From positions 1-23,690 of the IMG/VR virus record IMGVR_UViG_3300042544_003919: DNA of 23,690 nucleotides; one strand, written 5' to 3'. The notes beneath the pieces are model-generated. The model was not told where the DNA came from, did not search any database, and saw only the letters and a list, made by a program, of their open reading frames with translations. This document shows, in pieces, positions 2,327-23,690 of this stretch (position 1 is its first letter; each line of letters begins with the position of its first letter). Both the position numbers and the translations under genes were made by a program. This DNA is from a virus.

Positions 2327-2452
2327 CTTGGTCTCCTTGCTGTGGCGCCGGGGTAATTCCCTGTGCCTGAGGGACCATTCGCGCTGTAACGAGGGGCGAG
2401 CCAAGCGAGATTGAGCGTAACTTCGTTGCTATGATTGGGGAGTTTCAATCAT
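2327..2452 (-). promoter_or_regulatory. Repeated leader element, copy 3, hairpin overlapping the methyltransferase stop codon
   Basis: This copy lies upstream of the gene starting at 2326. Shared blocks are TTCGCGCTGT (2378-2387), AGCCAAGCGA (2399-2408), GAGCGT (2413-2418) and GTTGCTATGAT (2425-2435). The inverted repeat ATGATTG (2431-2437) and CAATCAT (2446-2452), with an 8-nt loop, spans the TGA of the methyltransferase gene at 2449-2451. The loop and stem lengths equal those of copy 2 although two stem pairs differ, which supports a real structure. Confidence 0.6.
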
Positions 2453-3696
2453 GATCGATTGGTTGTGCGTGTTGCAGTGACATCGGCAAAGGTGCGATCC
2501 TCACAATCAAGGATCGCCGCGTGCCTCGTTTCATCCTGCCAACGCTGGATGATTACATCGCAATAGGCGGGATCAATCTCCAGCAGCACAGCACGCCGCC
2601 CTGTACGCTCGGCCGCAATCATCGTCGTGCCCGAACCACCAAAACAATCCAGCACCGTATCGCGCGGCTTGCTGCTGTTGCGGATGGCGCGCTCGACCAG
2701 CGCCACCGGCTTCATCGTCGGGTGCAGATCGTTCCTGGCCGGCTTGTCGAAATGCCAGACATTCCCCTGGTCACGCGCGCCGCACCAGTAATGCTGCGCG
2801 CCAGCCTTCCAGCCATAGAGCATCGCTTCGAATTGCTGATGGTAATCTGCGCGCCCGAGCGCAAAGGTGTTCTTGGCCCAGATGATCGTGCTGGACCATT
2901 TGCCGCCTGCTTCCTGCCAGGCGCGATGCAGCGTTGGCCACTCGGAAGACGACATGCAAACATAGCTGGCGCCCTTGGTGACCGAGAGAAGGTTCGTCAG
3001 CGCCGGGCGCAGGAAATCCAGAAATCCCTTGCCCAGCGCGTCATTCGCGATGGTCATCTTGGCCGCCGTGCCGCCCTCGTAAGCAACATTATAGGGTGGA
3101 TCTAGAAAGGCCATGTCCGCGAGATGCCCCGCACCAAGGGCACGCTGCACATCGGCGGGCTTGGTCGCGTCACCGCAGAGCAACCGATGCTCTCCACAGC
3201 GCCAGAGATCTCCCTCGCGCGTGACGGGATTGACTGGCAGTGGCGGCGCTTCGTCAGCGTCCTCGCCATCAAGCCCAGCATCGGCGGCGGCCAGCAGCCG
3301 ATCCAATTCCATGCCGGAGAAGCCAAGCACGTCCAAATCCACCGTGCCTTCATCACGGATGCGCGCGATCTCCGCCGCCAGCAGCGCCTCGTCCCAACCG
3401 GAATTCAGCGCGATCTGATTATCCGCGAGCCGCAACGCGCGCGCCTGAGGTTCGCTGAGGTGCGCTAGCCGAATGGCGGGGACAGATGCCATGCCAAGCT
3501 GCTTGGCAGCCATGACGCGGCCGTGGCCCGCGACCAGAACACCCGCGCTATCCACCAGCACCGGGTTCACAAAGCCGAATTCGGCGATCGAGGATGCAAT
3601 CTGCGCTACCTGCGCCGGCGAATGCGTACGCGCATTTTCGGCATAGGGCACCAGCGCTGCAACCGGCAGCGAGACAACGGCAAGCTCAGGCTGCAT
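2449..3696 (-). CDS. ParB-domain DNA methyltransferase fusion, DPPY type (415 aa)
   Basis: This is an S-adenosylmethionine-dependent DNA amino-methyltransferase with a ParB/Srx-like N-terminus. Residues 5-95 are the ParB-like part (NPVLVDSAGVLVAGHGRVMA; AGHGR at 56-60). The methyltransferase part shows the catalytic DPPY at 199-202, a conserved HPTMKP at 325-330 and the cofactor-binding FGGSGTT at 352-358. DPPY before FxGxG is the beta arrangement, and DPPY favours N6-adenine methylation. The start at 3696 (AGGGGAA 8 nt upstream, 11-nt overlap with the preceding gene) is preferred over an ATG at 3747. Such fusions are common in alphaproteobacterial prophages and probably modify phage DNA against host restriction or regulate it. 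Target specificity cannot be read from the sequence. Confidence 0.9.
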   Translation of the reverse strand: MQPELAVVSLPVAALVPYAENARTHSPAQVAQIASSIAEFGFVNPVLVDSAGVLVAGHGRVMAAKQLGMASVPAIRLAHLSEPQARALRLADNQIALNSGWDEALLAAEIARIRDEGTVDLDVLGFSGMELDRLLAAADAGLDGEDADEAPPLPVNPVTREGDLWRCGEHRLLCGDATKPADVQRALGAGHLADMAFLDPPYNVAYEGGTAAKMTIANDALGKGFLDFLRPALTNLLSVTKGASYVCMSSSEWPTLHRAWQEAGGKWSSTIIWAKNTFALGRADYHQQFEAMLYGWKAGAQHYWCGARDQGNVWHFDKPARNDLHPTMKPVALVERAIRNSSKPRDTVLDCFGGSGTTMIAAERTGRRAVLLEIDPAYCDVIIQRWQDETRHAAILDCEDRTFADVTATRTTNRS

Positions 3697-5140
3697 CGGA
3701 AAGTTCCCCTTCGCGTGCTGCTGCCACCGCATCGTAATCGCGCCCATCGCCCGCCAGCGTCACCGGGTGATCTGGGTAAAGCATCCGCCAGCGTGCAATC
3801 GCCAAATCCACATAGACCGGCGCCAATTCAATGCCGCGCACAACGCGGCCCGTGCGCTCCCCGGCAATAAGCGTCGTGCCGCTGCCAGCAAAGGGTTCAA
3901 ACACCACCTCGCCAGTATCGGTGTACGCACGCATCAGGAAGTCCGGCAGCGCCACCGGAAACACGGCTGGATGTTCGGTCTCGATCCCACGCCCCTTATG
4001 GCGCGTGATGCGCAGCACGGCGTCGGGAATGCGCATGTCCTGCACCGGCTGGCCGATATGCGTGTAGGCCTTAACCTCGCCATCCGCCGCGCGCAGCCCG
4101 CTGCCCTTATTCGGCGTGCCTGCCCATTTGCAGGGGATGATCTTGTTGGCCTGACGCGCGCTGCGATTGAAGTGAAACACCAACTCAAACGCCGGTGCCA
4201 AGCGCCCATTCCAGTCACCCGGCAATCCCGGCCCCTGGTCCCAGGTGTAGAGCCCAAAGCGGCGCCAACCACGCGCGCGCATCCATTCCAGCCAGCCCTC
4301 CCAATAGGGCTGCCATTCATTTTCGCGATGGATCAGGCCGAGATTGACCAGCGCCTGGCCATCCGGCCGCAGCGCCTCGTCCAGATGCTGGAACACGCCC
4401 TGCATCAGCGCATCCCAATCGGAAACACCGCCGGTCGTATAGGCCCGCTGGTTGCCATAGGGCGGCGATGTGAACAGCATCGCGGCACGATCGCTTTCCA
4501 TCACGCGCGCGACCGTCGCCGCGTCGGTACTATCCCCGCACAGCAGCCGATGCGCGCCCAGCAGCCACAAATCGCCGGGGCGAGAGACCGCCTGGCGCGG
4601 TGCCTCAGGCTCTGCGTCAGCAGGATCGTCCGCATCTTCGGCAATTGCGGGCGCGGCAGGGTTCTCGGCGGTGTCCGCGGGCAGGGCCTCGGGCGCATCG
4701 CCGTCGGACACAGCATCTCCAGCCGCCGCGAGGATGCCCGCAAGTTCATCCGCCGAGAAACCAAGCGCGGCGAGGTCAATTTCTGCCGCCTGGACGCTCG
4801 CCAGTGCATCACGCAGCAGCGCCTGGTCCCAGGTGGCGTTCTCTGCGATGCGATTATCAGCAAGCCGCAGCGCTTCCTTTTGCGCGGGCGCGAGGTGCTT
4901 CAGCACAATCACCGGCACCTTGGCGATGCCGAGCGCTTCCGCCGCCGCCAACCGGCCATGCCCCGCGATCAGCACGCCGTCCTCGTCCACCAGCAGCGGA
5001 TTGGTGAAGCCGAAAGCCTGCATGCTGGCCATGATTTGCGCGAGCTGCGCCGCATCATGCACGCGCGCATTGCCGGCGTGCGGGCGCAGCGAGGCAATCG
5101 CGCGGAGTTGGATCCGCTCGGCCATCCAGGGAAGCGTCAT
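3686..5140 (-). CDS. ParB-domain DNA methyltransferase fusion, SPPY type (484 aa)
   Basis: The protein has the same plan as its downstream neighbour but with different catalytic sequence. A ParB/Srx-like domain occupies residues 9-100 (VLIAGHGRLAAAEALG, AGHGR at 59-63). An Ala/Asp/Pro-rich linker follows (about 140-186), then a methyltransferase with TSPPYGNQR at 224-232 and FAGSGTT at 417-423. SPPY in place of DPPY suggests N4-cytosine methylation, although some SPPY enzymes act on adenine. The two genes overlap by 11 nt and are presumably co-translated. The start is uncertain: neither ATG 5140 nor the in-frame ATG at 5125 has a good ribosome site. The upstream 660 bp separates the pair from the early operon, so they probably have their own promoter. 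Confidence 0.88.
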   Translation of the reverse strand: MTLPWMAERIQLRAIASLRPHAGNARVHDAAQLAQIMASMQAFGFTNPLLVDEDGVLIAGHGRLAAAEALGIAKVPVIVLKHLAPAQKEALRLADNRIAENATWDQALLRDALASVQAAEIDLAALGFSADELAGILAAAGDAVSDGDAPEALPADTAENPAAPAIAEDADDPADAEPEAPRQAVSRPGDLWLLGAHRLLCGDSTDAATVARVMESDRAAMLFTSPPYGNQRAYTTGGVSDWDALMQGVFQHLDEALRPDGQALVNLGLIHRENEWQPYWEGWLEWMRARGWRRFGLYTWDQGPGLPGDWNGRLAPAFELVFHFNRSARQANKIIPCKWAGTPNKGSGLRAADGEVKAYTHIGQPVQDMRIPDAVLRITRHKGRGIETEHPAVFPVALPDFLMRAYTDTGEVVFEPFAGSGTTLIAGERTGRVVRGIELAPVYVDLAIARWRMLYPDHPVTLAGDGRDYDAVAAAREGELSDAA

Positions 5141-5799: not shown

Positions 5800-6774
5800 A
5801 TGCTTAGTCGTCGATCCATTGTCGCTTTGCTGACGGGTACCTCTGCCCTTACCTCGCCGAGCTTTGCTCGCGCTCAAGGCTTTCCTAGTCGTCCAGTGCG
5901 CATCATTGCCCCTTACCCGCCAGGTGGAGGAATCGACACGGTCGCACGCCTGATCGCCGGTCCAATGTCTGAGTTTCTTGGGCAGTCAGTCGTGGTGGAG
6001 AACCGCGCTGGAGCCGGTGGTTCGATCGGTGCTGCCGCTGCCGCACAGGCTCAGCCCGATGGGCATACGCTTCTTCTCGATGCTTTGGGGCACGTGATCA
6101 ATCCGCTTTTGATCCGTGATTTATCCTTCGATTACGCTAGGGCCTTTGCCCCTGTTTCGTTGGTGGTGAGCCAACCGATCATTGTTGTTGGCAATCCAAA
6201 TCTGCCCATCCGCTCGCTCGCACAGCTGCTTGAGCGACTGAAGCAGCCCGGCGCAGATTTTTCATATGGCTCTTCAGGCAATGGAACAGGCCCTCACATC
6301 GCCGCTGAAAGTCTGCTTCGGCAAGCGGGCGTTCGCGCCACTCACGTGCCGTATCGCGGTGCTGCACCGGCGTTGCAGGACGTGATGTCTGGCAACCTAG
6401 CATTCGCTGTCGTGACTGCGGGTTCGACGGTTGCGCTTGCCCGTGAAGGAAAAGTCATACCCCTTGGCATACTGAGCCCGGAACGCATGGCATCTCTGCC
6501 AGATGTTCCCACAGCTAACGAAGGGGCGGTGCCAGGCTTTGTTTTCCAGGAGTGGAATGGTTTGTTTGTTCCGGCCGGTACTCCTGAAGGCGCTATAACG
6601 CGGCTTCATCAAGCGGCGCAGCACGCCGTAAACCAACAAGCAGTGCGTGACCGTCTTGCGACACTTGGTGCTGTGCCCGTGGGGTCATCCCCGAGCGCCT
6701 TTGCCAGCTTTCTATCCGCACAACGAGAGACTATTGCGCGGACGGTGGCCGCTGCGGGTATCACTGGAAGCTGA
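5800..6774 (+). CDS. TctC/Bug-family periplasmic solute-binding protein (324 aa)
   Basis: This is a tripartite tricarboxylate transporter substrate-binding protein of the Bug family, which binds small carboxylates or other solutes in the periplasm. It has an N-terminal export signal with a paired arginine (MLSRRSIVALLTGTSALTSP, likely cut after ARA near residue 25). The family hallmarks follow: FPSRPVRIIAPYPPGGGIDT, VVVENRAGAGGSIGA, the PDGHTLL motif, HVPYRGAAPALQDVMSGNL and GLFVPAGTP. Length is normal for the family. CGGGAG lies 9 nt before the ATG. No TctA or TctB permease gene is nearby, as is usual for orphan Bug proteins. It stands on the opposite strand inside the phage minus-strand gene series and looks less GC-biased than its neighbours, so I read it as inserted cargo. 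Confidence 0.93.
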   Translation: MLSRRSIVALLTGTSALTSPSFARAQGFPSRPVRIIAPYPPGGGIDTVARLIAGPMSEFLGQSVVVENRAGAGGSIGAAAAAQAQPDGHTLLLDALGHVINPLLIRDLSFDYARAFAPVSLVVSQPIIVVGNPNLPIRSLAQLLERLKQPGADFSYGSSGNGTGPHIAAESLLRQAGVRATHVPYRGAAPALQDVMSGNLAFAVVTAGSTVALAREGKVIPLGILSPERMASLPDVPTANEGAVPGFVFQEWNGLFVPAGTPEGAITRLHQAAQHAVNQQAVRDRLATLGAVPVGSSPSAFASFLSAQRETIARTVAAAGITGS

Positions 6775-15547: not shown

Positions 15548-15753
15548 CACTGCGCCCCCGCCGCTGCCGGCTGGTGCACCGCGTCACGCTCGTAAGCCTC
15601 GATATCTTCCAGCCGATAGAGAACCCTGCCGCCGATCTTTAGGTATCGCGGCCCTTGGTTGAGCCAGCGCCAGCGTTCCAGGGTGCGGGGGCTGACATTC
15701 CAGCGCCGCGCCAAGTGGATCTGGTTGAGGTGATTCGTAGGACTATTGTTCAT
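15547..15753 (-). CDS. AlpA/MerR-like excisionase-type DNA-binding protein (68 aa)
   Basis: A small winged-HTH protein. The pattern LARRWNVSPRTLERWRWLNQ, then GPRYLKIGGRVLYRLEDIEAYE, is the standard layout of AlpA/Xis-like HTH_17 proteins: a recognition helix, the GPxYxKxGxRVxYR wing and a helix with DIEAYE. It may act as the directionality factor for the serine recombinase or as a transcription factor of the early operon. It is translated in an ATGA overlap with the 76-aa gene before it. Confidence 0.88.
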   Translation of the reverse strand: MNNSPTNHLNQIHLARRWNVSPRTLERWRWLNQGPRYLKIGGRVLYRLEDIEAYERDAVHQPAAAGAQ

Positions 15754-15980
15754 GGGAATTTCGTCCTTTTTCCCGACGCTTGGCGGTCCTGCCTCACCTT
15801 TTCCATGAAGGCGCAGACCCGGTCTGCGGTCAGAAGGCTCGGCGATCGCCCTTTGCGTAAATGCCTAACAAAATTGGGATCCCCCATAGATTCTCGGCCA
15901 AAATCAGTGGCTTTCATCCGGGTGGCTTCCAGGAAGTCTTCAACTTCCGTGATGAACTGATCGCTGAATCGGGTCGTCAT
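15750..15980 (-). CDS. Cro-like small regulator, first gene of the early operon (76 aa)
   Basis: The sequence begins MTTRFSDQFITEVEDFLEAT and contains a short HTH-like region (KATDFGRESMGDPNFVRHLR, then GRSPSLLTADRVCAFMEKVR). The GDPxFVxxLRxGRxPxxxTxxRVxxFM pattern is frequent in small phage proteins that face the repressor gene. Position and size suggest a Cro-type counterpart of the S24 repressor transcribed divergently at 16070; this is inference. No good ribosome site precedes the ATG at 15980, so the transcript may be nearly leaderless or the gene may be weakly translated. Confidence 0.7.
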   Translation of the reverse strand: MTTRFSDQFITEVEDFLEATRMKATDFGRESMGDPNFVRHLRKGRSPSLLTADRVCAFMEKVRQDRQASGKRTKFP

Positions 15981-16069
15981 GAGGGCTAGGATTGACAGCC
16001 CAATTTACATGCGTCAATTAATTAAAATAGGCTATTACCTATCAATGGCAGATCAAGGAGTTAGGCACC
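15981..16069. promoter_or_regulatory. Divergent promoter/operator region between Cro-like and S24 repressor genes
   Basis: This 89-bp AT-rich gap separates the two divergent regulators. Inverted repeats are GGGCT/AGCCC (15983-15987 and 15997-16001), ATAGG/CCTAT (16027-16031 and 16038-16042, 6-nt spacer) and the palindrome AATTAATT near 16016-16023. On the minus strand TTGATA (16045-16040) and ATTAAT (16022-16017) are 17 nt apart, a possible early promoter overlapping the ATAGG/CCTAT operator. The repressor ribosome site AAGGAG lies about 10 nt before its ATG. Confidence 0.5.
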
Positions 16070-16786
16070 ATGGACCTCGATCCAACGCGTCTCAGGGTCA
16101 TGAAATTGATCCAGCAAAGGCGCACGGACCTGAAAAAAGCCTCGCTCGCGATCGGGCGAAACGCCGCCTATTTGCAGCAGTATCTCTATCGCGGGATTCC
16201 AAAGACGCTGCCTGAAGATGCGCGCGAAGCGCTTGCGGCGTTTCTTGAGGTGCCGGACGAAAGTCTGCGTCCCGCAAGGAAAGAATCGGCAAGCGAGGCA
16301 ACGCTGCCCGCCTTGCCATCAGCAGTTACAGCCGCTCCGCCACTTGCGTTGGCTGCGGCGGTGCCTGGATTTGCTCAGGTGCCGGAATTGGATGTGCGTG
16401 CCTCGGCAGGGCATGGCGCGTTTCACGAGGGTGACGAGGAAATAAAGGCAGTCTGGATGTTTCCTGATGCCGTAATTCGCCATGAATTGCGTGCACGATC
16501 TGCCAATCTCAGGATCATCACCATTGATGGGGATTCGATGGAGCCGCTTTTGGCCTCGGGCGATCGGGTACTGGTGGATACCGCACAGCGTGTGCCGGCG
16601 CCGCCAGGCATTTTCGTGATCTGGGACGGTCTTGGGATTGTGGCCAAGCGCATCGAGCACATCCCAACGGCGGAGCCATCACGCGTCGTGATCAAATCGG
16701 TCAATCCGCTTTACGGCGATTACGAGCGCCCGACAGAGGATGTGAATATCATCGGCCGCGTTATCTGGGCGGGGAAGAAGCTATGA
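16070..16786 (+). CDS. S24-family (LexA/CI-like) phage repressor (238 aa)
   Basis: A lysogeny repressor. The N-terminal 60 residues form a short HTH domain (LIQQRRTDLKKASLAIGRNA, with AYLQQYLYRGIPKTLP). An Ala/Pro linker (75-105) leads to the S24 peptidase domain: probable self-cleavage site A113-G114 (ASAGHG), catalytic S156 (GDSMEP) and K193 (GIVAKR). All residues needed for RecA-stimulated self-cleavage are present, so the element should respond to DNA damage. The gene is divergent from the Cro-like gene, and its stop overlaps the SUMF1 gene as ATGA, so repressor, SUMF1 protein and nuclease are likely one mRNA. Confidence 0.93.
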   Translation: MDLDPTRLRVMKLIQQRRTDLKKASLAIGRNAAYLQQYLYRGIPKTLPEDAREALAAFLEVPDESLRPARKESASEATLPALPSAVTAAPPLALAAAVPGFAQVPELDVRASAGHGAFHEGDEEIKAVWMFPDAVIRHELRARSANLRIITIDGDSMEPLLASGDRVLVDTAQRVPAPPGIFVIWDGLGIVAKRIEHIPTAEPSRVVIKSVNPLYGDYERPTEDVNIIGRVIWAGKKL

Positions 16787-17535
16787 CCATGCGCATGCTT
16801 GGGAAGACGCTGCTGGTTGCCCTTGGCTTACTCTCCGCCCCGGCTGCGCACGCCAATGGCGACATGCAGCCCATTGGCCGCTTTGCCATTGACCGGACCG
16901 AGGTTTCGGTCGGCGCATTTCGGCGCTTTGTCGCCGCTACGGGCATGGTCACCATGGCTGAGCGCCAGGGCGGTGGCTCCGTGTTTGAGGCGGGCTGGGT
17001 GCGCAAGCCTGGTTGGACCTGGAGCACGCCTTTTGGCGAGCCCGCTGATGAGCGCGAGCCAGCTGTACACATCACCTTCGACGAAGCCCATGCCTATTGT
17101 CGTTGGGCAGGCAAGCGCCTGCCGACCGATGCGGAGTGGCTGGAGGCCGCGCATACGGAGCGGCGCGCATCACCGTCCGCACCATTCCAGACCGGCGTGA
17201 CTTATCCCTATCCCACCGGCGAACGCCCGACCGGGGCGAATTGCCTGCGCGATTGCGGTCCAACACCTTTTGCCTTGGATCGCTCTGCGCGGCTCAACCG
17301 AGGCACTGGCCCTGCGCGCGTTGGCACCTCCCAGGCAGGGGTGAATGGCCTCTACGACATGGGGGCGAATGCTTGGGAATGGGTGGATACCGCGCTTGGC
17401 AGCGAGCGCATCACCCGCGGTGGTTCCTGGTGGTATGGCGCCTCGCAGATGCATCGCGACCACCGGGCCAGTAAGCCCCCGTCAACTGCGGTGGTTTATA
17501 TTGGCTTTCGTTGTGCGCAGGATCGAGGTTCCTGA
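16783..17535 (+). CDS. Exported SUMF1/FGE-fold protein (250 aa)
   Basis: The protein has a signal peptide (residues 1-25, hydrophobic LLVALGLLSAPAAHA, likely cut before NG) and a formylglycine-generating-enzyme-like domain. The hallmarks are IDRTEVSVGAFRRFVAATG (36-54), FDEAHAYCRWAGKRLPTDAE (99-118), GVNGLYDMGANAWEWV (186-201), RGGSW (212-216) and GFRC (241-244). The cysteine pair that binds copper in true FGE (after RGGSF in the family) is absent: the segment reads WWYGASQMHRDHRAS. Formylglycine formation is therefore unlikely, and a binding or structural role of the C-type-lectin-like fold is more plausible. Its start overlaps the repressor stop (ATGA); the nuclease gene follows after 4 nt. 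Confidence 0.9.
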   Translation: MTMRMLGKTLLVALGLLSAPAAHANGDMQPIGRFAIDRTEVSVGAFRRFVAATGMVTMAERQGGGSVFEAGWVRKPGWTWSTPFGEPADEREPAVHITFDEAHAYCRWAGKRLPTDAEWLEAAHTERRASPSAPFQTGVTYPYPTGERPTGANCLRDCGPTPFALDRSARLNRGTGPARVGTSQAGVNGLYDMGANAWEWVDTALGSERITRGGSWWYGASQMHRDHRASKPPSTAVVYIGFRCAQDRGS

Positions 17536-17539
17536 TCAG

Positions 17540-18040
17540 ATGAAATTGCTGTCCCGCCTTTCCCTGGCGCTGCTGGTTCTCGGCATTGCTGCGTCGCCCG
17601 CTCTGGCCAAGCGTATCGATCCCATCCTACTGCAAGGCGAGGCGCGCGCGGTTGATGGCGATACGCTGCAAGTCGGTGATACGCGGCTACGCCTGCATGG
17701 CATCGACGCGCCGGAGCTTCGTCAGACATGCGAGGATGAGACTGGCGAAGCTTGGGCCTGCGGGCGCCGCGCTGCATCCGAATTGGCGGCGGCGGTAGCC
17801 GGAGGTGAAATTCACTGCATCAGCCGCGAACGTGATCGTTATCAGCGCCTTGTTGCGACATGCTGGTCGCAGGGGCTGGATATCGGGCAATCACTTGTCT
17901 CGCATGGTTGGGCTGTCGCCTACCGCCGCTATTCGGTGGATTATGTGCGCGACGAGGATATCGCGCGCTACCTGACTCAAGGGATGTGGGCGGGACGATT
18001 CGAGATGCCCTGGGAATGGCGACAGGCGCGGCGGCGGTAG
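17540..18040 (+). CDS. Exported staphylococcal-type thermonuclease (166 aa)
   Basis: A secreted or periplasmic Ca-dependent nuclease of the SNase family. The signal peptide is MKLLSRLSLALLVLGIAASP with a probable cut after ALA at 23. The catalytic residues can be matched: D41 (VDGDT), R51, D56 and E59 (RLHGIDAPE) and R103 (DRYQRLVAT), the equivalents of D21, R35, D40, E43 and R87 of the staphylococcal enzyme. Cysteines at 64, 74, 93 and 108 could form disulfides in the periplasm. It follows the SUMF1 gene by 4 nt, with GAGG before the ATG, so it is expressed with the repressor. The role may be destroying DNA outside the cytoplasm. Confidence 0.93.
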   Translation: MKLLSRLSLALLVLGIAASPALAKRIDPILLQGEARAVDGDTLQVGDTRLRLHGIDAPELRQTCEDETGEAWACGRRAASELAAAVAGGEIHCISRERDRYQRLVATCWSQGLDIGQSLVSHGWAVAYRRYSVDYVRDEDIARYLTQGMWAGRFEMPWEWRQARRR

Positions 18041-18208
18041 TAGCAGCGCCATCTCCAGCCTTAGCGATTTTTCGCATTGATACCTTCTTTATCCTGTTGA
18101 TTCTCAACCGCCGAATTTTCTGTTTTCTGTCGTCGGAACTACGACCATGTTCGGTCCGCGAAAGGGCGTCCGAGTATCGCCCGCTGTTTCTAATTGCGGA
18201 AGGTCATC

Positions 18209-18430
18209 ATGCACGACGCTCTCTCCGGCCCCAATCCCCTCCCTGCCGAGTGCCTCTCGGCCCAGGAACGTCTGGATGAAGTCGCCTGCATCCTTGCAGG
18301 TGGCCTCAGGCGAATTCAGGCCCAGGAGGCAAGTTCTTTATCTGCCAAAAACGGAGAAAGTTCATTCGACATTCTCGCCCTCAAACGCCGTGTTGGTCGT
18401 CGTAAACCAAACACCCGCGTCGGAGAATGA
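18209..18430 (+). CDS. Small conserved protein of the DUF2924-recombinase cassette (73 aa)
   Basis: The product begins MHDALSGPNPLPAECLSAQE and continues RLDEVACILAGGLRRIQAQE. The pattern LSxxERLDEVAxILAxGLxRLxAR is common in short proteins encoded directly before DUF2924 genes in alphaproteobacteria. The function is unknown. GGAAGG precedes the ATG at 18209 (a TTG at 18194 would add five residues), and its TGA overlaps the DUF2924 start as ATGA. The 168 bp upstream of it (18041-18208) hold a T-rich stretch and an imperfect repeat GTCGT/ACGAC near 18129-18145, and probably the cassette promoter. Confidence 0.8.
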   Translation: MHDALSGPNPLPAECLSAQERLDEVACILAGGLRRIQAQEASSLSAKNGESSFDILALKRRVGRRKPNTRVGE

Positions 18431-18939
18431 TGATGGCAGTACTGAAGAGAAAACCTGAAGCAGAACCCTATCGGCAGTATCCCGGCACCAGCGACGCCAG
18501 CGTCGTCGCACAGCTGGCAGCGCTACAGAAAATGAGTGTGGTCGAGCTCAAGCAAAGATGGGAAATACTCTTTGGCTTGCCGGCGCCGAACAATAGCCGC
18601 AGCTACCTCGAACTACGGCTCGGCTACCGAATCCAGGAGCTGACGCTCGGCGGCCTGTCGCGCGAGACACGGCGAATGCTCGATCTCCTCGCCAATGAAA
18701 TCGACGGGAAGCTTGGCCGAAAAGCGATCATCGCAGACAGCCGCAACCCCGTCGTAGGCACGCGGCTGCTGCGCGAATGGAATGGCGTTGAGCATACCGT
18801 CACCGTTCTGCGGGATGTCTTCGACTGGCAGGGCCGCAGCTTCAAGTCGCTGTCCGCCGTCGCGCGGGCAATCACCGGTACGCAATGGAATGGCTACCGC
18901 TTCTTCGGGCTTCGTGAGGCCGGGAGGGATCCCCGATGA
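18427..18939 (+). CDS. DUF2924 protein (170 aa)
   Basis: The DUF2924 pattern is clear: VVAQLAALQKMSVVELKQRW near residue 25, LFGLPAPNNSRSYLELRLGY, the RIQELTLGGLS block, and the C-terminal TRLLREWNGVEHTVTVLRDV followed by FDWQGRSFKSLSAVARAITG and NGYRFFGL. The last part resembles a short DNA-binding domain shared with related recombinase-associated proteins. The role is not established, but the gene is nearly always linked to a serine recombinase in alphaproteobacteria. The start is one of three tandem ATGs (18427, 18430, 18433); the first overlaps the upstream stop. The end overlaps the recombinase ATG. Confidence 0.92.
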   Translation: MMMAVLKRKPEAEPYRQYPGTSDASVVAQLAALQKMSVVELKQRWEILFGLPAPNNSRSYLELRLGYRIQELTLGGLSRETRRMLDLLANEIDGKLGRKAIIADSRNPVVGTRLLREWNGVEHTVTVLRDVFDWQGRSFKSLSAVARAITGTQWNGYRFFGLREAGRDPR

Positions 18940-20769: not shown

Positions 20770-23690
20770 CTATGAAAGTGGATGAGCGACGTGTCCGCCG
20801 GTTGGCGTATTAGCCATCCAATCCATTACTGAGCGCACACAACCATCGGGATCATCACGCACCTGGCTCCCCCAAAAACGACGAACGTGCCAACCTAGCT
20901 CGATAAGGCGCTGGTTCCTGATAAGATCGTGGCGCACCCTTTCACCATCCCAGTGGTACAAGCGACCATCTACTTCGATGTCGAGTTTCCGATCACCATC
21001 GAAGATGGCAAGATCGAGGTGGTAGGCCCCAACAGGAAATTGCGGATACGGTTTGATGCCTGCTTTATACAGCGCCAAATATAGAAGCCGTTCCTCGTCT
21101 GAGACAGGCTTTGCGCCGCGTGGGAGAGACGGATAGTTCGGGCCAAAATCTCGGGTTACCTCGACAGCGGACATGGATGGCTGTTGAAGCGCGTCTACGT
21201 GCCGTACAAAGGCTTCAAGATAAGAGACACCGGACCGAGACGCTGCGACCTTGTCTCCAACAACAATCAATGCGGCGCGCGCGCGAGTGACGGCAACGTT
21301 GAATAGGTTTCCGTTCCCGCGAAGGAAGGCGAGCGCGCCCTCCGTCATCCCAGGTCCGCAAACAAGCGAGAAGAGCATGGTATCCCGCTCATTACCTTGA
21401 AAACTGTGCACTACGTCTACCATCAGATCAGCGTTTGCAGCTCGCGCAGTAATTTCCGGTTCAGTTTCAATCAACTCCTGCAGAAGTCTTTTTTGTGCGC
21501 GGAACGGTGTAACGACACCCACGGTGCCACCGTAATTTCTGTCTACGAGCAGGTCCCGGAGCGCAGCAACTGTAGCCCTGGCCGTTTCGTTTTGCAGGGC
21601 GCCGCCATTTAACGGTCGCGTCACCGGGCCAGAGGCATCTCGCCACGAGATGATCTTATCAGTTCTGGGCGGCACACGTAGCCGATCATACCGCGTCGCG
21701 ACGCGCAGCTTACCCTCGTAAAAATGCTGGTTCGAAAAATCGATGATATCTGCGTGTGATCGATGGTGATCCTTCAAGACCACGACATGCTCCGCTCCAA
21801 CTAGCGTGGCAGCGAGGTTGAACAGCGAGGACTGGGTGAAGGACCAGTAAGCCGAGTCCTCCGCCAAACCAAAGCGCTGCAGTAGCCGTTGGTCTTCAGC
21901 GGTTGAAAGCGTCGTGATGTGTGGAAGCTGCATAGGATCGCCGAGAATGACAGCTCGCTTCGCACGGTAGAGGAGTGGAAGCGTTGAGCCGATATCGCAT
22001 TGGCTCGCCTCGTCAATCACGACCAGGTCGAAGACGCCAGCCTCATAGGGAATACGCCCCTTCGCGGATAGCGCAGTCACCGCCCAGCAGGGTATGAGGC
22101 TTCGTAGGCTTTTTAACATTCCAATCCAGTCTATCTTTCGGCTTGCCTGCTCCGATCCCCCGCTCAGCTGCATCTTCAGGGTACTAGCAAAATTCGAAAC
22201 TGCCTTTCGCTCGTCAGCAGCCATCCTGGCCGCTCTCTCCGATAGAGACAGTCGCCAAAGGGCGCCGGCAATATCGGTTTTCTGAGCGCCGACCCTATTC
22301 AAAATTAGCGCTATGTCGGCATCCGATGTGCCGGTCTTTAGCCGTTCTGCGGCTTCTACATACTCAGCGACCTTTGGGAGTAACGCCACCCGTTCCCGAA
22401 GCCTATCTAAAGTCCCGGCAAGGCTTATTTCATTGTCAAGTGATAGACCGTGGGCGATGGTGTGCTGGGCGACAGAGGACCGCGCTTCTAGGAACGCAAC
22501 TTGCCGGCCTTTCCGGATAAGCGGCCAGATTAGCTTCAAGAAAATACTGTGTTGCCACCGATCGCAACGCCGCACTTGTTTATCAAGCTCTTCGACAAGG
22601 TCGCGCGACATTGTCGCTTCAACGGCAAGACGTCGCAGACGAGCCTCTCCAAGAGCTTGCTTAAGTGGGGCAATGTCGTCTTCAAGTTCTGCAATTCTAT
22701 TTCGTAATTTGACAACATCGTCCAGTTGCTTGTTGGCCTGTTCCGCTTGTACCGCGAGGGCCGCATACTGCTTCCGGAATACCTCAAGCTGCGTCGCTTG
22801 CAGCAGATCTGTGCCAGACGCGAGCAATCGCCCTAGTTGTTCAGCAAGTTTGGTAATGAACTCGTTGCGGTTCGCGATGCGCACCATCACGGGGCGATCG
22901 GCGAGCCCGTTGACGCGCTCTTCCACAACATCGACAGCCCGATTGTTGTGGCTTGAAAAAAGGACTGTCTGTCCGTTCCAGACCGCATTTGCGATCAAAC
23001 TTGTGACAACCTGGGATTTACCCGTTCCAGGGGGGCCAGTTATCACCGTAAGTGGCTCGGTGAGCCCCTTTTGAACAGCGTCTCGCTGCTCCGCATTCAG
23101 AGAAACTACTTCAATAAGACCGTGCGGAGTTTGCCCCCGCTGCTGGTGCGCCCCATCGACCCATCCGCCTAGCGCAGTTCCAGCCAAGCTCTCCTGCCGT
23201 TGACGCCCAAGTGCTTCCAATTCGTTCTCGAGGCCGGCCGTGAATTTTTTTTGTTTAACTAGAAAAACTGCGGCTCGATTCAGAATACCCTCGGCTGTTG
23301 GCGACGTAAGCGGATTACCTGTGCTGAGAACGAATGGATCGATACGCTCGACCCAAGGCCAGTCGGGCCGCACATTAGGAAGCCGGAACAGGACGTCCTC
23401 CAGATCCGGCAGATCTGTCGCATCCGCCCTTAGCCCGAGCGCACTCGAGATCTCGACACCCTCGGCAACCGCGGCTGACGGGCCACCTGGCGCAAAGTGG
23501 GCCAAAAGACTGTGGTTGAAAGAAATGCGCCCGACAGGTGCATCGGTACCATCCGGTGAATAAGGCAACAGGAGGAGAGGCTCGAGCATCCAGAAGGTGT
23601 TGCCCTTCTTGCTCATGAGCTGTCGCGCGAAGATGGGATAGCCGATATATAAGTCTTGCTCTTTTGATTTCGCAGCCTTGCTGACAAGTC
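20770..23690 (-). CDS. SF1 (UPF1/Dna2-like) helicase with C-terminal Vsr/DUF559-like nuclease; 5' end outside the window
   Basis: The frame is open to the right edge and the residues before the ATG at 23616 read as protein (KAAKSKEQDLYIGYPIFARQ), so the start lies outside; at least 972 residues are visible. Numbered from that ATG: GPPGTGKS (194-201), a long coiled-coil insertion with WPLIRKG (about 275-480), VVIDEASQ (532-539), GDPMQLP (559-565), HSFQGNERD (737-745), NVAVTRAR (773-780), then a nuclease domain with D868 (YHLDLAI), E881 and D883 (DIEVDG), H888, and RRFWGSQV. That is a helicase joined to a small Vsr-fold endonuclease, a plan known from bacterial defence proteins. It lies convergent to the integrase cassette. 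A defence role is inference. Confidence 0.9.
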   Translation of the reverse strand, partial: LVSKAAKSKEQDLYIGYPIFARQLMSKKGNTFWMLEPLLLLPYSPDGTDAPVGRISFNHSLLAHFAPGGPSAAVAEGVEISSALGLRADATDLPDLEDVLFRLPNVRPDWPWVERIDPFVLSTGNPLTSPTAEGILNRAAVFLVKQKKFTAGLENELEALGRQRQESLAGTALGGWVDGAHQQRGQTPHGLIEVVSLNAEQRDAVQKGLTEPLTVITGPPGTGKSQVVTSLIANAVWNGQTVLFSSHNNRAVDVVEERVNGLADRPVMVRIANRNEFITKLAEQLGRLLASGTDLLQATQLEVFRKQYAALAVQAEQANKQLDDVVKLRNRIAELEDDIAPLKQALGEARLRRLAVEATMSRDLVEELDKQVRRCDRWQHSIFLKLIWPLIRKGRQVAFLEARSSVAQHTIAHGLSLDNEISLAGTLDRLRERVALLPKVAEYVEAAERLKTGTSDADIALILNRVGAQKTDIAGALWRLSLSERAARMAADERKAVSNFASTLKMQLSGGSEQASRKIDWIGMLKSLRSLIPCWAVTALSAKGRIPYEAGVFDLVVIDEASQCDIGSTLPLLYRAKRAVILGDPMQLPHITTLSTAEDQRLLQRFGLAEDSAYWSFTQSSLFNLAATLVGAEHVVVLKDHHRSHADIIDFSNQHFYEGKLRVATRYDRLRVPPRTDKIISWRDASGPVTRPLNGGALQNETARATVAALRDLLVDRNYGGTVGVVTPFRAQKRLLQELIETEPEITARAANADLMVDVVHSFQGNERDTMLFSLVCGPGMTEGALAFLRGNGNLFNVAVTRARAALIVVGDKVAASRSGVSYLEAFVRHVDALQQPSMSAVEVTRDFGPNYPSLPRGAKPVSDEERLLYLALYKAGIKPYPQFPVGAYHLDLAIFDGDRKLDIEVDGRLYHWDGERVRHDLIRNQRLIELGWHVRRFWGSQVRDDPDGCVRSVMDWMANTPTGGHVAHPLS

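What the first reader, a model, noticed from the sequence alone, without database searches (positions are those of the whole stretch)
16070..18040. Repressor operon carrying an exported SUMF1-fold protein and an exported nuclease
The S24 repressor stop overlaps the SUMF1 start (ATGA) and the nuclease begins 4 nt after SUMF1. Both downstream products have signal peptides. The nuclease keeps its catalytic residues, while the SUMF1 protein lacks the copper-binding cysteines of true FGE. Because the repressor is the gene expressed in the lysogen, the pair would be constitutively present outside the cytoplasm. A two-part periplasmic barrier, in which the SUMF1-fold protein binds a surface structure or incoming phage/plasmid DNA machinery and the nuclease cuts the DNA, is an attractive undescribed superinfection-exclusion system.
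Basis: partly seen in the sequence, partly recalled or inferred. Interest (0 to 1): 0.75.

Follow-up and report, generated by a model that had tools for sequence, protein, structure and literature searches.

The report
Prophage repressor operon exports a nuclease
A family of bacterial viruses that lie dormant in their hosts keeps a gene for a DNA-cutting enzyme sent outside the cytoplasm directly behind the gene that maintains dormancy, and some of them have slipped a second exported protein of unknown role between the two; it probably guards the carrier cell and the resident virus against incoming DNA, but nothing has been tested at the bench.

Summary
An S24 repressor (16070-16786) overlaps an exported SUMF1-fold gene (16783-17535, ATGA), and an exported staphylococcal-type nuclease (17540-18040) starts 4 nt later. 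Its catalytic residues are intact. The SUMF1 protein has Tyr and Met, invariant in 30 relatives, where formylglycine-generating enzyme has its copper cysteines.

Comparison changes the emphasis. Among 43 non-redundant phage or prophage loci carrying this repressor with at least 1 kb downstream, 30 have the exported nuclease (repressor and nuclease distances correlate, r = 0.845) but only 9 have SUMF1, and all 9 of those also have the nuclease. So repressor plus exported nuclease is the core, and SUMF1 is optional. One near relative has the nuclease coupled directly to the repressor with no SUMF1. The pair also occurs outside the phage behind another regulator, once beside a type III restriction system. 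The same slot elsewhere holds restriction genes, a candidate defence system or an unrelated exported nuclease.

Most likely this is a lysogen-expressed exported nuclease acting against incoming DNA, like the prophage nucleases YokF and Dns that block transformation, with SUMF1 as accessory. The two-part superinfection barrier is possible but unproven. Novelty: a new variant of a known kind.

The parts
15750..15980 (-). Small divergent gene, Cro-like by position (76 aa)
   Evidence: Conserved divergently from the repressor in nearly all relatives; no Pfam or PHROG match
15981..16069 (.). Divergent control region; candidate operator ATAGG-N6-CCTAT at 16027-16042
   Evidence: Largely invariant in 8 phages; the palindrome occurs once in the window, 0.25 expected with 1 mismatch allowed
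16070..16786 (+). LexA/CI-type S24 repressor, 238 aa
   Evidence: PF00717 47.2 bits; phrog_4 transcriptional repressor; S156, K193 and an A-G site invariant
16783..17535 (+). Exported SUMF1-fold protein, 250 aa, optional insert between repressor and nuclease
   Evidence: PF03781 118.6 bits; model pLDDT 86.7, best PDB hits are FGEs; copper cysteines replaced by Y218/M223; absent in 34 of 43 loci
17540..18040 (+). Exported staphylococcal-type nuclease, 166 aa; conserved core partner of the repressor
   Evidence: PF00565 47.4 bits; model pLDDT 89.7 matches staphylococcal nuclease; present in 30 of 43 repressor loci
18194..18430 (+). Small conserved ORF before DUF2924
   Evidence: Conserved in relatives; no Pfam family
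18427..18939 (+). DUF2924 protein next to the integrase
   Evidence: PF11149 163 bits
18936..20273 (+). Large serine integrase; right border of the cargo slot
   Evidence: Resolvase and Recombinase domains; phrog_95 integrase E=7.7e-101

Best explanation
This is the immunity operon of a temperate phage family whose known members in bacterial genomes lie in Alphaproteobacteria, several of them Roseomonas-like. The autocleavable S24 repressor gene is followed, in the same direction and often translationally coupled, by an exported staphylococcal-type nuclease; some phages, including this one, have inserted an exported SUMF1-fold protein between them. In a lysogen the repressor transcript would carry these genes, so the nuclease would be present in the periplasm or outside the cell, where it cannot harm the host chromosome but can cut DNA arriving from outside. 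The most likely benefit is protection of the resident prophage and its host against incoming DNA: transforming DNA that could replace the prophage, and possibly DNA injected by rival phages. SUMF1 is an accessory protein, probably non-catalytic as an FGE, perhaps binding or positioning something outside the cytoplasm. Shown: gene order, conservation, folds, catalytic residues, purifying selection. Inferred: export, lysogen expression, the target, the role of SUMF1.
For: 30 of 43 non-redundant repressor loci with at least 1 kb downstream carry the nuclease; repressor and nuclease distances correlate (Mantel r=0.845, p=1e-4, n=30), so they have long been inherited together. The nuclease follows the repressor even when the integrase is a tyrosine type (L116) or when the repressor is a distant XRE-S24 protein that overlaps the nuclease start (L195). 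Every intact repressor-linked nuclease starts with a hydrophobic signal-like segment, and nearly all keep the catalytic motifs. L300: repressor 95% and nuclease 89% identical to the window's, no SUMF1, TGATG coupling. Strong purifying selection. The slot also holds HNH and type IV restriction genes (L308), a PDC-M41/M30-like pair (L139) and an exported GmrSD_C-type nuclease (L135). Prophage or ICE nucleases YokF, Dns and IdeA block transformation (PMC4774983, PMC10893306). ComEC is present in 7 of 8 host genomes.
Against: 13 of 43 loci lack the nuclease and it is truncated in L112-L114, so it is useful but not essential. No expression, localisation or activity data. A PilQ-type secretin did not pass its cut-off in any of the 8 host genomes, so natural competence of these hosts is unproven. 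Other SNase-family genes exist in the host genomes, and an exported nuclease could equally serve nutrition. No PADLOC model covers these genes beyond a weak SNc+LTD hit.
Confidence: 0.5

Rival explanations
1. Two-part periplasmic superinfection-exclusion system: the SUMF1-fold protein recognises incoming phage or DNA-transfer machinery and the nuclease cuts the DNA.
For: All 9 phage loci with SUMF1 also have the nuclease downstream; the pair also moves as a unit behind an Xre/MbcA-like regulator in L020/L021, with a 92.8% identical block ending at the nuclease stop, and in L021 lies beside a type III restriction-modification system; the phage SUMF1s fall in two clades, suggesting two recruitments into the same slot (0 of 200 bootstrap trees unite them).
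Against: 21 of 30 nuclease loci lack SUMF1. In L005 and L009 other genes lie between SUMF1 and the nuclease. A single SUMF1 acquisition is not formally rejected (AU p=0.059). No receptor, tail or complex evidence.
Confidence: 0.15
2. SUMF1 is an independent host-benefit gene that hitchhikes in the cargo slot and has no functional link to the nuclease.
For: The family is a widespread, mostly solitary exported chromosomal gene in Beta-, Alpha- and Gammaproteobacteria with no common neighbour; the slot takes many unrelated inserts.
Against: SUMF1 was found with the nuclease in 9 of 9 repressor loci and in both complete Xre-regulated cassettes, but beside no nuclease in the chromosomal orphans examined.
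Confidence: 0.25
3. The exported nuclease is a lysogenic-conversion gene for nutrition or eDNA turnover (growth on DNA, biofilm dispersal).
For: Other SNase-family genes occur in the host genomes; freshwater hosts may scavenge DNA phosphate (general knowledge).
Against: Long co-inheritance with the immunity repressor and restriction or candidate defence genes in the same slot point to competition between elements.
Confidence: 0.2
4. The nuclease acts in the lytic cycle, degrading host or released DNA at lysis.
For: Phages often carry nucleases (general knowledge); no tool result favours this.
Against: It lies behind the repressor, divergent from the small Cro-like gene and the minus-strand replication genes, and has an export signal.
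Confidence: 0.08

Closest known systems
Prophage and ICE exported nucleases that inhibit transformation: B. subtilis YokF, C. jejuni CJIE1/2/4 Dns, V. cholerae IdeA (PMC4774983, PMC10893306)
   Same: Mobile-element-borne nuclease acting outside the cytoplasm; YokF, from the SPbeta prophage, is to my knowledge also an SNase-type nuclease
   Different: Here the gene is tied to the immunity repressor operon across a phage family and can be accompanied by an exported SUMF1-fold protein; no activity shown
SNIPE membrane-bound nuclease (PMC13190303)
   Same: Nuclease placed to meet phage DNA during injection
   Different: SNIPE is an inner-membrane protein with cytoplasmic DUF4041 and GIY-YIG domains; here a soluble-looking exported SNase
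Repressor-operon exclusion genes such as lambda rexAB (own knowledge)
   Same: Cargo cotranscribed with the lysogeny repressor
   Different: rexAB act from inside the cell; here products are predicted outside the cytoplasm
Formylglycine-generating enzyme / SUMF1 (PDB 5nyy, 2q17, 6muj; CalU17 7ml6)
   Same: Fold; conserved C106/C244 positions compatible with a disulfide
   Different: Copper cysteines replaced by invariant Tyr and Met; extra invariant C154-x3-C158
SUMF1-type gene in halovirus YPCBV-1 (PMC9769972)
   Same: Phage-borne SUMF1/EgtB/PvdO-type gene
   Different: A Mu-like phage with a diversity-generating retroelement; no repressor-nuclease context reported in the passages read

Membership tests
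Staphylococcal nuclease family (PF00565) | Profile match above cut-off and fold | tested here: met
   47.4 bits vs 21; model matches SNase structures, prob 1.00
Staphylococcal nuclease family (PF00565) | Catalytic Asp/Arg/Asp/Glu/Arg set | tested here: met
   D39, D41, R51, D56, E59, R103 invariant in 19 sequences
Formylglycine-generating enzyme | SUMF1 fold | tested here: met
   PF03781 118.6 bits; FGE structures are best hits
Formylglycine-generating enzyme | Two copper-binding cysteines | tested here: not met
   Y218 and M223, 30 of 30
Formylglycine-generating enzyme | Acts on a sulfatase (sulfatase gene near by) | tested here: not met
   No sulfatase among the window proteins scanned with Pfam
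S24 autocleaving phage repressor | S24 domain with Ser/Lys dyad and Ala-Gly cleavage site | tested here: met
   PF00717; S156, K193, A113-G114 invariant
Mobile-element anti-transformation DNase | Exported nuclease encoded by an integrated element | tested here: met
   Prophage loci in MAGs; signal-like N-termini; export itself only predicted
Mobile-element anti-transformation DNase | Lowers transformation | not testable with these tools
   Host ComEC present in 7 of 8, but no assay
Superinfection-exclusion system | Lysogen resists related or other phages because of these genes | not testable with these tools
   Needs plaque and adsorption assays
Known anti-phage systems in PADLOC | Match to a system model | tested here: not met
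   None for repressor or SUMF1; nuclease only weakly to SNc+LTD, 27 bits

The most novel reading that the evidence does not exclude
A temperate-phage family has built an extracytoplasmic DNA barrier into its immunity operon: a lysogeny-linked exported nuclease, upgraded at least twice by adding an exported pseudo-FGE-fold protein that targets or licenses the nuclease at sites of DNA entry, with the pair also moving as a defence cassette outside phages.
Probability: 0.15. Interest if true: 0.8.

Novelty: new variant of a known kind. Interest (0 to 1): 0.5.

Why it matters
Prophage-borne exported nucleases are known one at a time. Here one is tied to the lysogeny repressor across a whole phage family, in a slot that otherwise holds restriction or candidate defence genes. 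If confirmed, some prophages guard their place in the genome by cutting DNA before it enters the cell, which makes the idea that mobile elements suppress transformation directly testable. It also draws attention to a widespread, uncharacterised exported SUMF1 subfamily without the FGE active site.

Tried and rejected
Searches failed on coordinates or scope and were repeated correctly. Known phage records and plasmids gave only distant SUMF1 relatives, all under 60% identity; annotated Rhizobium relatives lie next to an aldo/keto reductase, with no nuclease. Rejected: SUMF1 as a working FGE (copper cysteines absent); SUMF1 as a hypervariable lectin-like DGR target (dN/dS 0.04-0.11, no hypervariability); the nuclease as a partner of the serine integrase (it stays with the repressor when the integrase is a tyrosine type). 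Literature searches for an SNase or SUMF1 repressor-operon exclusion system found no direct report; the library is open-access only, so absence there is weak evidence. A complex prediction was not possible with single-chain folding.

Full report
The window is a 23.7-kb virus record. Its minus strand carries a phage replication block (primase, helicase, Cas4-type exonuclease, Sak4-like annealing protein) and a small Cro-like gene that diverges from the S24 repressor. On the plus strand the order is repressor, SUMF1, nuclease, a small ORF, DUF2924, serine integrase. All stated details of the finding are correct: ATGA overlap, 4-nt gap, signal-like N-termini, intact nuclease residues and missing copper cysteines.

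Relatives of SUMF1. Ten viral contigs and prophage loci in MAGs labelled Roseomonas carry it in this setting; where the contig reaches far enough the order is repressor-SUMF1-nuclease. Beyond these, 55-76% identical SUMF1 proteins are common, mostly solitary exported chromosomal genes of Beta-, Alpha- and Gammaproteobacteria with no shared neighbour. The phage copies fall in two clades inside that family: the window group with L009, and L011 with L034. No bootstrap tree unites them, but the AU test is borderline (p=0.059), so two recruitments are likely, not proven.

Relatives of the repressor gave the key result. I collected repressor relatives from viral contigs and from a sample of 397 genomes of the host order, merged near-identical loci, and required at least 1 kb downstream: 43 clusters. 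The nuclease is present in 30, SUMF1 in 9, and all 9 SUMF1 loci have the nuclease. Repressor and nuclease protein distances correlate strongly (r=0.845). The nuclease stays with the repressor when the integrase is of another type (L116/L117) and sits behind a distant XRE-S24 repressor in L195. L300 is a close relative without SUMF1, where the nuclease start overlaps the repressor stop (TGATG). So the exported nuclease is the core and SUMF1 an optional insert that took over the coupling position. Other inserts in the slot are a PolB-type exonuclease, a 150-aa protein shared by several loci, small membrane proteins and a 408-aa exported protein; RecD2 helicase often follows the nuclease.

Hints about function. 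Where the nuclease is absent or joined by other genes, the slot can hold HNH and type IV restriction enzymes (L308), a PDC-M41/M30-like pair (L139/L140) or an exported GmrSD_C-type nuclease (L135). Outside phages, L020 and L021 share a three-gene block (Xre/MbcA-like regulator, SUMF1, nuclease; 92.8% over 1.7 kb, ending at the nuclease stop), and in L021 it lies beside a type III restriction-modification system. The regulator's Pfam match is below the curated cut-off, and MAG binning errors cannot be excluded. SUMF1 and nuclease are both under strong purifying selection.

Structure. The nuclease model (pLDDT 89.7) matches staphylococcal nuclease. The SUMF1 model (pLDDT 86.7) matches FGEs first, then CalU17, SUMF2, PvdO and EgtB-type enzymes. 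Tyr218 and Met223 stand where FGE has its copper cysteines and are invariant in 30 sequences; the only conserved cysteines are C106, C154, C158 and C244, consistent with two disulfides in an oxidising compartment. It is therefore not an FGE by its defining feature; whether it has another activity is open.

Mechanism. The best-supported account is a lysogen-made extracytoplasmic nuclease that destroys incoming DNA. Published precedents are prophage and ICE nucleases that reduce transformation by one to three orders of magnitude (YokF, Dns, IdeA; PMC4774983; PMC10893306), and SNIPE shows that a nuclease can meet phage DNA during injection (PMC13190303). ComEC in 7 of 8 host genomes makes transformation a possible target, though a PilQ-type secretin did not pass its cut-off. 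Shown here: anatomy, recurrence, selection, folds, catalytic residues. Inferred: export, transcription in the lysogen, the target, and any contribution of SUMF1.

Noticed in passing
window 20770-23616 (-): Large helicase with an MTES_1575 nuclease domain, resembling MkoA/MkoC, PDC-S37 and Hhe defence proteins (PADLOC), just beyond the integrase: a likely further defence gene.
   Followed up: partly
window 5800-6774 (+): A TctC-type tricarboxylate receptor gene (PF03401), host-like, inside the phage replication block on the opposite strand; L300 also has a TctC-like ORF after its nuclease.
   Followed up: no
window 2449-3747 and 3686-5140 (-): Two adjacent ParB-domain plus DNA methyltransferase proteins of the same family (phrog_498), overlapping by 62 nt: apparent duplication.
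   Followed up: no
L135 6311-7111: An exported-looking GmrSD_C (HNH) nuclease with a Cys/His-rich N-terminal motif in the position usually held by the SNase: a possible non-homologous replacement.
   Followed up: partly
L308 (reverse strand) 2453-4703: HNH and type IV-like restriction genes between the repressor and the SNase.
   Followed up: partly
L139 6117-8045: DUF5131 plus partner resembling candidate defence systems PDC-M41/M30 in the repressor-integrase slot, no SNase.
   Followed up: partly
L020 1-1738 and L021 7327-9246: SUMF1-SNase pair behind an Xre/MbcA-like regulator outside the phage, as a shared 1.7-kb block; beside type III restriction-modification in L021.
   Followed up: yes
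L022-L097: Widespread solitary exported SUMF1 subfamily with invariant GGSWWYG...M and four cysteines, no shared neighbour, function unknown.
   Followed up: partly
L109 5831-6223 and 8864-9325: One phage carries two SNase genes, one after the repressor and one after the integrase.
   Followed up: no
window 16027-16042: Palindrome ATAGGCTATTACCTAT in the conserved divergent control region, a candidate repressor operator.
   Followed up: partly
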